Notes under the pieces: generated by a model | Database searches by the model: none | What the model saw: the letters and a program-made list of their open reading frames with translations, nothing else | Told to the model about the DNA's origin: nothing | Shown: piece after piece, positions 12,699 to 29,438 of the stretch | How the letters are laid out: each line of letters starts with the position of its first letter | Numbering within the stretch: the first letter of the stretch is position 1 | Made by a program: the position numbers and the translations under genes | DNA from: Rhizobium sp. CF122 | GTDB taxonomy: Bacteria; Pseudomonadota; Alphaproteobacteria; Rhizobiales; Rhizobiaceae | Length of the DNA stretch: 64,000 nucleotides | Assembly: GCF_000282035.1 (NCBI RefSeq) | Contig: NZ_AKKA01000023.1 | Coordinates: 62,001-126,000, forward strand | Direction of reading: 5' to 3'

Positions 12699-12743
12699 AT
12701 GAACACGTCCTTGAACATTGCAGTTTGGTGGTGGGCTCGCTGA
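12699..12743 (+). CDS. trpL: trp operon leader peptide
   Basis: Fourteen codons reading [14 protein letters not shown], then TGA. Three consecutive Trp codons near the end are the classic sensor of a Trp attenuator: ribosomes stall there when charged tRNA-Trp is scarce. The rhizobial leader peptide has the same WWWAR ending. There is no Shine-Dalgarno, and the promoter position indicates a leaderless mRNA. The stop codon runs into the first pairing segment of the attenuator (12744-12749). Too short for ordinary gene finders. Confidence 0.9.
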
Positions 12744-12780
12744 GGCGGCCTCGACCAATCGTGTCCAAAGACGACGAGTG

Positions 12781-12811
12781 AGCCGCCCGGAAAACGCCAG
12801 GCGGCTTTTTT
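12781..12811 (+). terminator. trp attenuator terminator
   Basis: Stem AGCCGCC (12781-12787) / GGCGGCT (12800-12806) followed by a run of six T (12806-12811). A textbook intrinsic terminator placed 48 bases before the trpE(G) start. Confidence 0.88.
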
Positions 12812-26206: not shown

Positions 26207-27391
26207 ATGCTCAAAGACTTCTCCGTTCAAAGCCTGTTTATGGGCCTCCTCACTACGTTCGTGGGGTTTGCCAGCTCCTTTGCGGTCGTGCTGCACGGCC
26301 TGCAGAGTGTCGGCGCGACGGATGCGCAGGCGGCATCGGGCCTCATGGCGCTATCAATCGCGCTGGGGCTCTGCGCGATCGTGCTGAGCTCCGTGACGCG
26401 GCTGCCCATCAGCATTGCATGGTCCACGCCCGGCGGGGCGCTGCTTGCAAGTACCGGCGTGGTCGAGGGCGGGTTCAATGCGGCGGTCGGCGCGTTTCTT
26501 ATCTGCGCAGTGCTGATCGTGATCGCCGGCCTGTTCAAGCCGCTCGGCCGGGCGGTTGCGGCCATTCCCGCGCCACTCGCCAATGCGATGCTCGCTGGTG
26601 TGCTGATCGGGTTGTGCTTTGCGCCGGTCAGGGCGATCGGCTTCAATCCGTCGCTCGGCTTGCCGATCGTATTGGCGTGGATCGCCGTTGGCGCCTTCAA
26701 GCGACTCTGGGCGGTGCCGGCGGCTCTAGCGGCCTTCGTGCTTGTGGTTGCCTTCGGCGTTGACATTCCCGAGGGGGCGTTGGGCTCGATCCAACAGGTG
26801 CTGCGGCCGCCGGTCGAGTTCGTCATGCCCGTCTTCAACCTGCCGGCTTTCGTCTCCATCGCCCTGCCGCTTTTCATCGTGACCATGGCGTCGCAGAACA
26901 TTCCCGGCATCGCCGTCCTGAAGGTGAACGGCTACGAGCCGAAACCCGGCCCGCTCTTCTCGGTGACGGGCCTCTTTTCGATCCTATCAGCGCCGTTCGG
27001 GGGGCATGCGGTGAATCTGGCTGCCATCACAGCTGCAATGTGCGCCGGCCAGGACGCGCATCCCGATCCCGCGCGACGGTATTGGGCCGTCCTCGTCTCA
27101 GGCATCTCCTATGTCATTCTCGGACTACTGGCAGGCGCGGTGACGACTTTCGTGGCCCTGGCGCCGCCAATCCTGATCCAGGCGGTGGCTGGACTGGCAC
27201 TGGTCGGCGCTTTCTCCGGCTCGGCCATGGCAGCGTTCCAGGCACCGGAATCGCGAGAGGCGGCGGCCATAACGTTTCTGGTGACGGCATCCGGCGTTTC
27301 CTTTGCGGGAATCTCCGGCGCATTCTGGGGATTGCTCGCCGGAGGGTCGATGCTGGCCCTGTCACGTTTTGTGCAAGCGGCGAAAAAATAG
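26207..27391 (+). CDS. BenE family benzoate/H+ symporter-like transporter
   Basis: A 394-residue membrane protein with about 12 predicted helices. Family features are 'TRLPISIAWSTPGGALLAST', 'PLANAMLAGVLIGLCFAPV' and 'LFIVTMASQNIPGIAVLKVNGYEP', followed by 'FSILSAPFGGHAVNLAAITAAM'. BenE imports benzoate by proton symport in known cases. No aromatic catabolic gene is nearby, so the substrate here is open. The start ATG 26207 begins the family-like part; upstream in-frame sequence overlaps the promoter region of the divergent regulator. Confidence 0.85.
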   Translation: MLKDFSVQSLFMGLLTTFVGFASSFAVVLHGLQSVGATDAQAASGLMALSIALGLCAIVLSSVTRLPISIAWSTPGGALLASTGVVEGGFNAAVGAFLICAVLIVIAGLFKPLGRAVAAIPAPLANAMLAGVLIGLCFAPVRAIGFNPSLGLPIVLAWIAVGAFKRLWAVPAALAAFVLVVAFGVDIPEGALGSIQQVLRPPVEFVMPVFNLPAFVSIALPLFIVTMASQNIPGIAVLKVNGYEPKPGPLFSVTGLFSILSAPFGGHAVNLAAITAAMCAGQDAHPDPARRYWAVLVSGISYVILGLLAGAVTTFVALAPPILIQAVAGLALVGAFSGSAMAAFQAPESREAAAITFLVTASGVSFAGISGAFWGLLAGGSMLALSRFVQAAKK

Positions 27392-27400
27392 ACGGAGGGA

Positions 27401-27429
27401 TTGCCAGTTTTTTGTACCCCGGCTATAAG
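27401..27429 (+). promoter_or_regulatory. leuL-leuA promoter
   Basis: TTGCCA (27401-27406), exactly 17 bp, then TATAAG (27424-27429). This is a good sigma-70 type promoter. The -10 ends 7 bases before the A of the leuL ATG at 27437, so transcription should begin at or next to that A. Confidence 0.75.
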
Positions 27430-27436
27430 CGCGGCC

Positions 27437-27562
27437 ATGAAGAACACGGGCATCATGATTTCTGAGCAGATTGCACGCGGGCGTATCGCCCTGCGCGACA
27501 ATACGCGCGCCCTGACCTCGCTTCTTCTCCTCGGCCTTACGCGCGGTTGCCGGGTCCGTTGA
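27437..27562 (+). CDS. leuL: Leucine-rich leader peptide of leuA
   Basis: Forty-one codons ending in TGA. Residues 26-34 read LTSLLLLGL, six leucines in nine positions, including four consecutive CTT/CTT/CTC/CTC codons (27521-27532). This is the expected sensor of leucyl-tRNA charging ahead of the gene for the first leucine-specific enzyme. There is no Shine-Dalgarno, and the promoter places the mRNA 5' end at the ATG, as in trpL. A second in-frame ATG is codon 7. Leu leader peptides before leuA are known in bacteria; the leaderless feature is my inference. Confidence 0.7.
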   Translation: MKNTGIMISEQIARGRIALRDNTRALTSLLLLGLTRGCRVR

Positions 27563-27653
27563 GGAGCGCCCGGCGGCCGAAAGCCCGCCCAGGCCATCGC
27601 TCCTCGTGACCAATCCCGAAAACTGATCAACCGGATGCTTTCGCACCGGATTC
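27561..27653 (+). promoter_or_regulatory. Structured leader between leuL and leuA
   Basis: An 8 bp outer stem GAGGAGCG (27561-27568) / CGCTCCTC (27598-27605) encloses an inner stem GGCGG (27572-27576) / CCGCC (27585-27589). A further hairpin follows at 27631-27649 (CCGG..TGC/GCA..CCGG). The outer stem overlaps the leuL stop codon, so a ribosome finishing the leader peptide would disrupt it. No run of T follows any of these stems, so the switch may not be a standard intrinsic terminator. Confidence 0.55.
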
Positions 27654-27722
27654 GTCATCGCCAAGCCAGACCCGATACGCTATGACGCGGCTGGCCAGAT
27701 GACGGGAAGAGGAAGAGAAGAC

Positions 27723-29438
27723 ATGGACACGAACACCCGCTCCCAAACCAAAGGCATGCCCGAGGCGGCGATCAAGTATCGCGCCTATCCGCAGGTGAAC
27801 ATCCCTGACCGTACATGGCCGTCCAAGACGCTGACCAAGGCGCCGATCTGGTGCTCGGTCGATCTGCGCGACGGCAACCAGGCGCTGGTCGACCCGATGG
27901 GCCACGACCGCAAGGCCCGGATGTTCCAGTTGCTGCTCGACATGGGTTTTAAGGAAATCGAGATCGGTTTCCCATCGGCATCGCAGACGGATTTCGACTT
28001 CGCGCGCTGGTGCGTGGAGCAGAGCAACGTACCTGATGACGTGTCGCTGCAGGTGCTGGTGCAGTGCCGTCCGGAGTTAATTACCCGTACGTTCGAGGCG
28101 CTGGAAGGGGCGAACCGCCCGATCGTTCACTTCTACAACTCCACTAGCGAATTGCAGCGTCGTGTCGTGTTCGCCAAGGATGTCCAGGGCATCAAGCAGA
28201 TCGCAGTCGATGCGGCGAAGATGATCTCCGACATGGCTGCCAAGGCTGGCGGTGGCTACCGCTTCGAATATTCGCCGGAGAGCTTCACCGGGACCGAACT
28301 TGAGGTGGCTTTGGATATCTGCAACGCCGTCATAGAGGTGATGAAGCCGACGCCTGACAATAAGCTGATCATCAACCTGCCGTCCACGGTCGAGATGGCG
28401 ACGCCGAACGTCTATGCCGACCAGATCGAGTGGATGTGCCGCAATCTCGACAATCGCGAAAACCTGATCATTTCGCTGCATCCACATAACGACCGCGGCA
28501 CCGGTATCGCTGCTGCCGAGTTGGCCTTGCTGGCGGGTGCAGATCGCGTCGAAGGCACGCTGTTCGGCAATGGTGAGCGCACCGGCAACGTCGACGTCGT
28601 CACCATGGCGCTGAACATGTTCACTCAAGGAGTCGATCCGGAGATCGACTGCTCCAATATCGTGCGCATGAAGGAAGTGTTCGAATATTCGAACCAGATG
28701 CCGATCGGCGAGCGCCACCCTTATGTCGGCGAACTGGTCTACACGGCTTTCTCCGGCTCGCACCAGGATGCGATCAACAAGGGCATGAAGGCGATCAAGG
28801 TTGCCAACCACCCGGTTTGGGAAGTGCCTTACCTGCCGATCGATCCGCAGGATGTCGGCCGTACCTACGAGGCGATCATCCGCATCAACTCGCAGTCCGG
28901 CAAGGGCGGCATCGCCTACATCCTGCAGCAGGATTACGGGCTGAACCTGCCGCGCAACCTGCAGGTCGAGTTCCGCGAAGACATCCAGCGGATCACCGAC
29001 GAAGAGGGCAAGGAATTGCCGTCGAAGCGCATCTACGACCGTTTCATCGAGCGCTACGTGACGCAGCCGGTAGGCCGCATCAAGTTCGTCGATCACCACA
29101 CCTATGCCGATCCGGAGCACAAGGGGCAGCGCATCGTCGCCGCCGAGATCACCGACAACGGCGAGACGAAGCGCATCGAAGGCAAGGGCAATGGCCCGGT
29201 CGACGGCTTCGTCAACGCGCTCTCGCACTATCTCGGCATCGACATGTCGGTCGAGGACTATTCGGAGCACTCGCTGCAGCATGGCTCGAACGCTGCGGCC
29301 ATCTCCTACGTCGAGACCTCCTATCCGGGCGGCAAGCTCTTTGGCGCCGGCATCAGCACGAACATCGTCGGTGCATCCCTGGAGGCGATCGTCTCTGCCG
29401 CAAACCGCGTGCTCGAGGTCAAGGCTGGAAAGGCCTGA
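27723..29438 (+). CDS. leuA: 2-isopropylmalate synthase
   Basis: Condenses acetyl-CoA and 2-oxoisovalerate to 2-isopropylmalate, the first leucine-specific step (EC 2.3.3.13). The 571-residue protein belongs to the longer LeuA type ('YRAYPQVNIPDRTWPSK' start). The catalytic barrel shows 'CSVDLRDGNQALVDPM' and the metal-binding H253-x-H255 in 'LHPHNDRGTG'; the C-terminal ~150 residues form the leucine-sensing regulatory domain. ATG 27723 has GAGGAAGAG in front. Controlled by the leuL leader and probably by leucine feedback. Confidence 0.96.
   Translation: MDTNTRSQTKGMPEAAIKYRAYPQVNIPDRTWPSKTLTKAPIWCSVDLRDGNQALVDPMGHDRKARMFQLLLDMGFKEIEIGFPSASQTDFDFARWCVEQSNVPDDVSLQVLVQCRPELITRTFEALEGANRPIVHFYNSTSELQRRVVFAKDVQGIKQIAVDAAKMISDMAAKAGGGYRFEYSPESFTGTELEVALDICNAVIEVMKPTPDNKLIINLPSTVEMATPNVYADQIEWMCRNLDNRENLIISLHPHNDRGTGIAAAELALLAGADRVEGTLFGNGERTGNVDVVTMALNMFTQGVDPEIDCSNIVRMKEVFEYSNQMPIGERHPYVGELVYTAFSGSHQDAINKGMKAIKVANHPVWEVPYLPIDPQDVGRTYEAIIRINSQSGKGGIAYILQQDYGLNLPRNLQVEFREDIQRITDEEGKELPSKRIYDRFIERYVTQPVGRIKFVDHHTYADPEHKGQRIVAAEITDNGETKRIEGKGNGPVDGFVNALSHYLGIDMSVEDYSEHSLQHGSNAAAISYVETSYPGGKLFGAGISTNIVGASLEAIVSAANRVLEVKAGKA

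What the first reader, a model, noticed from the sequence alone, without database searches (positions are those of the whole stretch)
27401..27562. Leucine-rich leader peptide before leuA that looks leaderless
Seen directly: a 41-codon ORF with LTSLLLLGL near its end, a TTGCCA-N17-TATAAG promoter whose -10 ends 7 bases before the ATG, and no Shine-Dalgarno. Known: Leu-rich leaders can control leuA by ribosome stalling. Inference: the mRNA starts at the ATG, as reported for rhizobial trpL, so two separate amino-acid attenuators in this genome may share leaderless translation, making both respond to the pool of 70S ribosomes able to start on 5'-terminal AUGs. The peptide and short RNA could also act in trans, as reported for trpL.
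Basis: partly seen in the sequence, partly recalled or inferred. Interest (0 to 1): 0.75.

Follow-up and report, generated by a model that had tools for sequence, protein, structure and literature searches.

The report
Leaderless leucine-sensing switch before leuA
In Rhizobium and its relatives the gene for the first step of leucine synthesis is preceded by a tiny leucine-rich gene that is predicted to be read from the very first base of its message and likely works as a leucine sensor, with a layout very like one known from actinobacteria.

Summary
In detail: a 41-codon Leu-rich ORF (27437-27562) precedes leuA, with TTGCCA-N17-TATAAG ending 7 nt before the ATG and no Shine-Dalgarno. It is not chance: 217 of 217 leuA upstream regions of Rhizobiaceae and kin carry such a leader (208 distinct; 1-2 of 208 in shuffles); 202 of 208 place a promoter 5-10 nt before the ATG (5-14 in shuffles) and the base before it is C in 92%. 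The leader overlaps RNA with two competing folds of equal predicted energy: A and the outer helix of B covary strongly, B's upper stem less surely. 195 of 203 lack a T-rich tail after B, so a classical terminator is missing. Layout, leaderless start and missing terminator match the actinobacterial leuA leader (LEU element). trp, ilv and leu leaders of this genome share the start geometry. Most likely, stalling at CUU/CUC codons holds fold A and leuA on; completed translation lets B form. The output step is inferred.

The parts
27401..27429 (+). predicted promoter: TTGCCA (27401-27406), 17-nt spacer, TATAAG (27424-27429)
   Evidence: position relative to ATG kept in 202 of 208 loci
27437..27562 (+). 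leuL, leader ORF of 41 codons, predicted leaderless (transcript start at or next to A of ATG)
27521..27538 (+). control codons CTT CTT CTC CTC (Leu29-32), GGC, CTT (Leu34)
   Evidence: CTT is 743 of 1224 Leu codons in the last 17 leader codons of 208 loci versus 143 of 1091 in long ORFs of the window
27544..27579 (+). hairpin A: 27544-27554 with 27569-27579; leader stop codon TGA (27560-27562) lies in its loop
   Evidence: 99.4% of cells paired, 5 pairs with changes on both sides, slid controls at most 50.6%; -24.5 kcal/mol predicted
27561..27605 (+). hairpin B, competing with A: outer helix 27561-27567 with 27599-27605, upper stem uses the 3' arm of A; the outer helix could instead form a pseudoknot with A
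   Evidence: outer helix; upper stem (energy test, no overall effect; matching arm types); -25.1 kcal/mol predicted
27709..27720 (+). leuA Shine-Dalgarno region GAGGAAGAGAAG, complementary (G-U allowed) to the Leu run 27521-27532 at 11 of 12 positions
   Evidence: sequence; specificity of this pairing inconclusive
27723..29438 (+). leuA, 2-isopropylmalate synthase of the long (M. tuberculosis-like) type

Best explanation
Upstream of leuA lies a conserved 41-codon leucine-rich leader gene (leuL) that is predicted to start at the first base of the transcript and overlaps RNA predicted to fold in two competing ways, so that ribosome stalling at its leucine codons likely decides how much leuA is made. 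With leucine short, a ribosome held at Leu29-Leu32 would have its leading edge at about 27533-27542, just short of the 5' arm of hairpin A (27544), so A folds with the leader stop codon in its loop and B is excluded. With leucine plentiful, the ribosome runs to the stop inside A, opens A, and B (equal predicted energy) can form on release. B lacks a U-tail, so the off step is predicted to be masking of the leuA Shine-Dalgarno by the vacated CUU/CUC run, as proposed for the actinobacterial LEU element, or else Rho-dependent termination; I lean to the former. Shown: ORF, promoter geometry, coding constraint, covariation of A and of B's outer helix, distribution. Inferred: 5' end, stalling, sign and output step.
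For: Leader in 217 of 217 regions, 208 distinct (1-2 of 208 in shuffles). Promoter placement 202 of 208 versus 5-14 in shuffles, C at -1 in 92%. A: 99.4% paired, 5 doubly changed pairs. B outer helix: 99.2%, 3 doubly changed pairs, and its closing pair swaps G-C (27 of 66) for A-T (26), G-T 6, unpaired 7. Upper B stem: arm GGCGG goes with CCGCC (95 of 177), GGCGA with TCGCC (9 of 14), GGTGG with CCACC (4 of 7), GGTAG with CTACC (1 of 1), GGCAG 1 of 2, GACGG 0 of 2; foreign partners at most 12 of 177 in the GGCGG row, 1 of 14 and 1 of 7 each in the next two. Predicted energies -24.5/-25.1 in the window, means -25.7/-25.8 over 208. CTT enriched. One hit of the RNA model in the genome; 18 of 19 hits in 297 genomes of the order sit before leuA. 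Precedent: S. lividans leuL1 before leuA is transcribed leaderless and lacks a typical terminator (PMC8079986, passages).
Against: No 5' end, ribosome footprint or expression data for this locus were available. An energy version of the upper-B test shows no overall effect: own partner better than foreign in 107 of 203, mean -0.25 kcal/mol; only minority arm types gain clearly (CCCGGCGATCG -3.3, n 11) and some go the other way. The Leu-run/SD pairing beats trpE/ilvB start regions in 152 of 208 and leuA start regions of the other class in 136 of 208, but shuffled leuA start regions only in 108 of 208, so base composition may explain it. PMC1262725 cites S. coelicolor work in which leuA leader mutations did not fit classical attenuation, and its authors favoured a protein-binding site. 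A can form on untranslated RNA, so the sign depends on translation keeping pace.
Confidence: 0.55

Rival explanations
1. Transcription attenuation: B is the terminator (U-poor intrinsic or Rho-assisted; the Rho branch overlaps the second choice of the best explanation) and A the antiterminator; stalled ribosomes favour A and read-through into leuA.
For: A and B share the arm 27569-27579 and have equal predicted energy; same logic as trpL in the same genome; 8 of 203 relatives have at least 5 T in the 8 bases after B.
Against: No terminator-like site at 27300-27800 (that scanner also missed the trpL terminator, so it is a weak test); 195 of 203 without a T-rich tail; TTTT within 110 nt of the leader stop in 53 of 208 versus 29 of 30 for trpL.
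Confidence: 0.35
2. The RNA structure is a binding site for a regulatory protein and the leader peptide is secondary, as its discoverers preferred for the actinobacterial LEU element.
For: Strong conservation of the A arms; opinion in PMC1262725.
Against: Coding constraint in the ORF, CTT enrichment, Leu-rich leader in 217 of 217; stop codon placed in the loop of A.
Confidence: 0.12
3. The leader is translated from a leadered transcript: transcription starts upstream (for example read-through from the gene ending at 27391) and the promoter resemblance is incidental.
For: The upstream ORF is co-directional and ends 45 nt before the ATG.
Against: 202 of 208 promoter placement versus 5-14 in shuffles, C at -1 in 92%, no SD above background.
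Confidence: 0.08
4. The main role is in trans: the leader peptide or a short leuL RNA regulates other mRNAs, as rnTrpL and peTrpL do.
For: Amino-acid-level constraint in the N-terminal part within Rhizobium, codons 9-25 pN/pS 0.31; precedent PMC7298713 (passages).
Against: No terminator found to release an sRNA; N-terminal parts of the GCRV and GDRR groups look unrelated by eye.
Confidence: 0.08

Closest known systems
LEU element of actinobacterial leuA (PMC1262725; leuL1 of S. lividans in PMC8079986)
   Same: Leu-run leader before long-type leuA; hairpin right after the run with the stop codon in its loop; loop-to-downstream helix plus an alternative fold; leaderless start (reported for S. 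lividans); no typical terminator; in the window the Leu run is complementary to the leuA SD.
   Different: Leader mostly 38-41 codons instead of 13-16; in the window the leuA start is 160 nt after the leader stop, with further hairpins between; base stem not demonstrated here; described only for Actinobacteria in the papers I could read.
Rhizobial trp attenuator trpL / rnTrpL (RcsR1, RF02552)
   Same: Same genome (12699-12811), leaderless geometry, stalling codons.
   Different: The trpL ORF is 14 codons and is followed by a hairpin with a run of six T; leuL has no such tail; different amino acid and fold.
Enterobacterial leu operon attenuator (recalled, with its Rfam family RF00512)
   Same: Leu-codon leader controlling leu genes.
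   Different: SD-led short leader and U-tailed terminator (recalled); no Rfam match to leuL here.
Alphaproteobacterial ilvB leader (ilvL)
   Same: Promoter-like pair 5-10 nt before the start in 22 of 24 leaders found among 30 loci.
   Different: Ile/Val codons and, in this genome, a hairpin followed by seven T.

Membership tests
[quoted passage not shown]
   217 of 217 regions, 208 distinct; 1-2 of 208 in shuffles
LEU element (leuA leader of Actinobacteria) | Hairpin whose loop pairs with a downstream segment (pseudoknot) | tested here: met
   A 99.4% and loop helix 99.2% paired, with double changes; whether both exist at once was not tested
LEU element (leuA leader of Actinobacteria) | Alternative hairpin in the same region | tested here: inconclusive
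   arm types go with their own partners, but the energy test shows no overall effect, 107 of 203
LEU element (leuA leader of Actinobacteria) | Base stem between Leu codon run and leuA SD | tested here: inconclusive
   better than foreign regions but not than shuffled ones
LEU element (leuA leader of Actinobacteria) | Detectable relatedness of the RNA | tested here: inconclusive
   model R1 hits the Nonomuraea leuA leader in place, 17.2 bits, E 0.0031; 0 of the other 3 actinobacterial regions hit in place
Leaderless mRNA | 5' end at the start codon | not testable with these tools
   only promoter spacing, C at -1 and missing SD could be tested
Classical transcription attenuator | U-tailed terminator hairpin after the leader | tested here: not met
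   8 of 203 tails with at least 5 T of 8; none at the window site (weak scanner)
Classical transcription attenuator | Competing folds around a leader rich in the regulated amino acid | tested here: met
   upper B stem less sure
rnTrpL-like trans-acting attenuator RNA | Short terminated RNA that acts on other mRNAs | not testable with these tools
   no terminator found; expression data not available

The most novel reading that the evidence does not exclude
One old leaderless, terminator-free leucine switch, so far described for Actinobacteria, also runs leuA across Alphaproteobacteria and travels with long-type leuA: the leader's stop codon sits in the loop of hairpin A, so only a ribosome that finishes the leader flips the RNA, and freed CUU/CUC codons close the leuA start. 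Rhizobia run at least three amino-acid leaders (trp, ilv, leu) from 5'-terminal AUGs.
Probability: 0.4. Interest if true: 0.75.

Novelty: new variant of a known kind. Interest (0 to 1): 0.6.

Why it matters
The leuA leader of rhizobia and kin matched no Rfam, Pfam or NCBIfam family, and its 26 database relatives are unnamed, hypothetical or uncharacterized, one under a Clp protease name. If right, the same terminator-free leader switch serves two phyla, giving a tractable system (S. meliloti has it) for two open points: how a leader without a terminator controls its gene, and whether leaderless starts matter for attenuation. It also offers a clean test of the 70S-pool idea: add an SD and see whether regulation changes.

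Tried and rejected
Long-range pairing of Leu run and leuA SD: tested twice, modest and composition-dependent, kept as inconclusive. Pairing of the Leu-run end TCGGCC with GGCCGA: 87.9% paired, no better than shuffles, rejected. Extra leaders before homoserine dehydrogenase and pheS in this genome: none found by my rule (for pheS the fetched stretch began inside the gene, so it is no test). First passes for the leader gave 188 of 217 and 208 of 217; misses came from loci read on the wrong strand, four loci without my anchor motif and too strict a tail filter; the relaxed rule gave 217 of 217 and its false rate was then measured. One locus (L105) was dropped for lack of upstream sequence. Of the 115 family matches without a locus, 73 were fetched and 42 were not; one search kept the best 80 of 593 or more. 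The 24 genomes of other families were not searched for leader ORFs. For codons 26-41 pN/pS is not used, because the 40 leaders were chosen by a motif there. In one search the choice among several trpL starts rewarded C at -1, so that count is biased; the choice among ilvL candidates used the promoter score. The actinobacterial set is only four leaders; a viral-contig scan gave one partial leuA. Vitreschak 2004, a survey of proteobacterial attenuators, was seen only as a citation, so an earlier prediction of this leader cannot be excluded; searches for prior reports. On rechecking I lowered the best explanation from 0.6 to 0.55 because.

Full report
What is there. The window is from a Rhizobium species (the closest named loci, L031 and L032, are Rhizobium with LeuA 98% identical). 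Between the ORF ending at 27391 and leuA (ATG 27723) lie TTGCCA-N17-TATAAG (27401-27429), seven bases and an ATG at 27437 that opens a 41-codon ORF ending in TGA 27560-27562.

Is it more than chance. I collected leuA upstream regions with three searches and region fetches: 217 with upstream sequence, 208 distinct. All 217 carry a Leu-rich leader, mostly ending ...LLLLGLTRGCRV. or ...LLLLGLIGDRR(V/A)R or close variants. The rule was relaxed after two passes; it finds 1-2 of 208 in shuffled regions and 0 of 208 on the other strand. The best promoter-like pair, scored without looking at the ATG, falls 5-10 nt before an in-frame ATG in 202 of 208, versus 5-14 of 208 in ten shuffles; aligned on that ATG (six loci by length instead), the base before it is C in 92%, as expected of a transcription start on the A. 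The weights of that scan were written after seeing some loci, so part of the contrast is fitted; a generic TTGACA/TATAAT scan on other groups (below) points the same way. No Shine-Dalgarno above background.

Is it translated. In 40 distinct Rhizobium-type leaders pN/pS is 0.55 for codons 2-8 and 0.31 for codons 9-25, against 1.34 and 1.45 in the other two frames. The Leu codons are unusual: CTT makes up 743 of 1224 in the last 17 codons but 143 of 1091 in long ORFs of the window and 1 of 36 in leuA.

The RNA. On 66 of the 110 sequences left after thinning to under 80% identity, hairpin A pairs in 99.4% of cells with five doubly changed pairs; sliding the partner gives at most 50.6%. The helix of AGGAGC with GCUCCU pairs in 99.2% (slides at most 61.7%), and the pair closing it swaps G-C for A-T (27 and 26 of 66; 6 G-T; 7 unpaired); in the window that base is the G of the stop codon TGA. 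The upper stem of B uses the 3' arm of A: each common arm type goes with its own complement, but only 110 of 203 regions have an exact five-base partner and an energy test shows no overall gain (107 of 203, mean -0.25 kcal/mol). So the outer helix may instead act as a pseudoknot with A. A and B have equal predicted energy. 195 of 203 have no T-rich tail after B; TTTT occurs within 110 nt of the leader stop in 53 of 208 leuL and 29 of 30 trpL.

Other leaders in the genome. trpL (ATG 12699, [14 protein letters not shown]) has TTGCAC-N17-TAACAA-8-ATG; S. meliloti trpL is reported to start at its AUG (PMC7298713, PMC10117765; passages). Upstream of ilvB lies MKIAVALIVVGRRMGRVV with TTGACG-N17-TATCAC-8-ATG and a hairpin followed by seven T. 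Across Rhizobiaceae the base before the start is C in 24 of 30 trpL (the choice among several starts rewarded C, and L242 looks wrong) and 19 of 24 ilvL, with a promoter-like pair in 22 of 24 (6 of 30 loci gave no leader; candidates were ranked partly by promoter score). So three leaders share the geometry.

Distribution. A covariance model (R1) finds one copy in this genome and hits 19 of 297 genomes of the order: 12 in the own family, 6 in one genus of another family, one weak hit; 18 of 19 sit before leuA. The filters are strict and can lose weak matches. In one search the 24 genomes of other families have only distant LeuA (27-32%); the genus of the six hits, and Pleomorphomonas koreensis (79%), are exceptions that carry long-type LeuA with the leader. 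The closest solved structure is M. tuberculosis LeuA; the four actinobacterial LeuA used here are 53-57% identical, but Acinetobacter and Burkholderia ones are about 53% too, and 63 other genomes of 240 in the class have the long type at 48-62%. Origin and direction of any transfer are therefore open. Of 35 regions from outside (29 alphaproteobacterial loci, six plasmid-collection records) 33 have Leu-rich leader candidates, 42 in all, some surely spurious; 26 of 42 have a promoter 5-9 nt before an in-frame start with a generic scan, and 19 of 42 a stem around the stop codon at p 0.04 or less against shuffles. In the 29 alphaproteobacterial loci R1 gives 15 hits at E up to 1 (best L315, 28.7 bits): 15 of 15 on the leuA strand, 13 within about 430 nt before leuA, 7 over the end of a Leu-rich leader.

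The closest relative. PMC1262725 (parts 1-2 of 3 read) describes the LEU element before actinobacterial leuA: Leu-run leader, pseudoknot or alternative hairpin, a base stem of Leu codons and leuA SD, mechanism unknown. PMC8079986 (passages) reports that S. lividans leuL1, MRFGLLLLSCRGEGL, is transcribed leaderless and lacks a typical terminator, as in other Actinobacteria. The four actinobacterial regions fetched (L307, L308, L309, L311) show a Leu run, then a hairpin with the stop codon in its loop (4 of 4 at p 0.02 or less), as in Rhizobium. R1 matches the Nonomuraea leader in place with 17.2 bits (E 0.0031), not the other three. I therefore say it works like a LEU element and is probably related, but do not file it as a proven member.

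How it most likely works. A ribosome whose A site waits at Leu29-Leu32 would cover RNA to about 27533-27542 (footprint size recalled), leaving the 5' arm of A (27544) free: A forms, B cannot. A ribosome at the stop covers the 5' arm of A; after release B can form. That gives leuA on in leucine shortage. The output is inferred: the missing U-tail speaks against intrinsic termination; SD masking by the Leu run fits the window (11 of 12 positions) and the CTT bias but fails the shuffle control.

Leaderless starts are common in Caulobacter and known in S. meliloti (PMC4117421, passages), and in S. meliloti adding an SD to trpL fusions did not alter the response seen (PMC7298713, passages), so the 70S-pool link is unsupported. 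A trans-acting leuL RNA would need a terminator. A trans role of the peptide is not excluded.

Noticed in passing
L249 (own genome, upstream of ilvB; G000 contig C120): Leaderless-looking ilv leader peptide MKIAVALIVVGRRMGRVV with a U-tailed terminator-like hairpin; a similar leader in 24 of 30 Rhizobiaceae loci examined.
   Followed up: yes
window 12699-12811: trpL/rnTrpL (RcsR1): the Rfam match starts at 12715, 16 nt inside the leader that starts at 12699.
   Followed up: partly
L315, L336, L341: Some other Alphaproteobacteria have two successive Leu-rich leaders before leuA; why two is unclear.
   Followed up: no
window 27631-27704: Two further hairpins between B and the leuA start seem kept in Rhizobium by changing letters on both sides (CGTCATC/GATGACG here, GCATTTGC/GCAAATGC in relatives); seen by eye, not counted.
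   Followed up: no
leuA 27723-29438: Rhizobiaceae have the long M. tuberculosis-like LeuA while the other-family genomes have only distant ones, which suggests replacement or transfer of leuA, perhaps with its leader.
   Followed up: partly
database proteins P0003-P0026: Several database copies of leuL start at upstream codons (52-72 aa), and one UniRef entry (P0009) is named as a Clp protease subunit.
   Followed up: no
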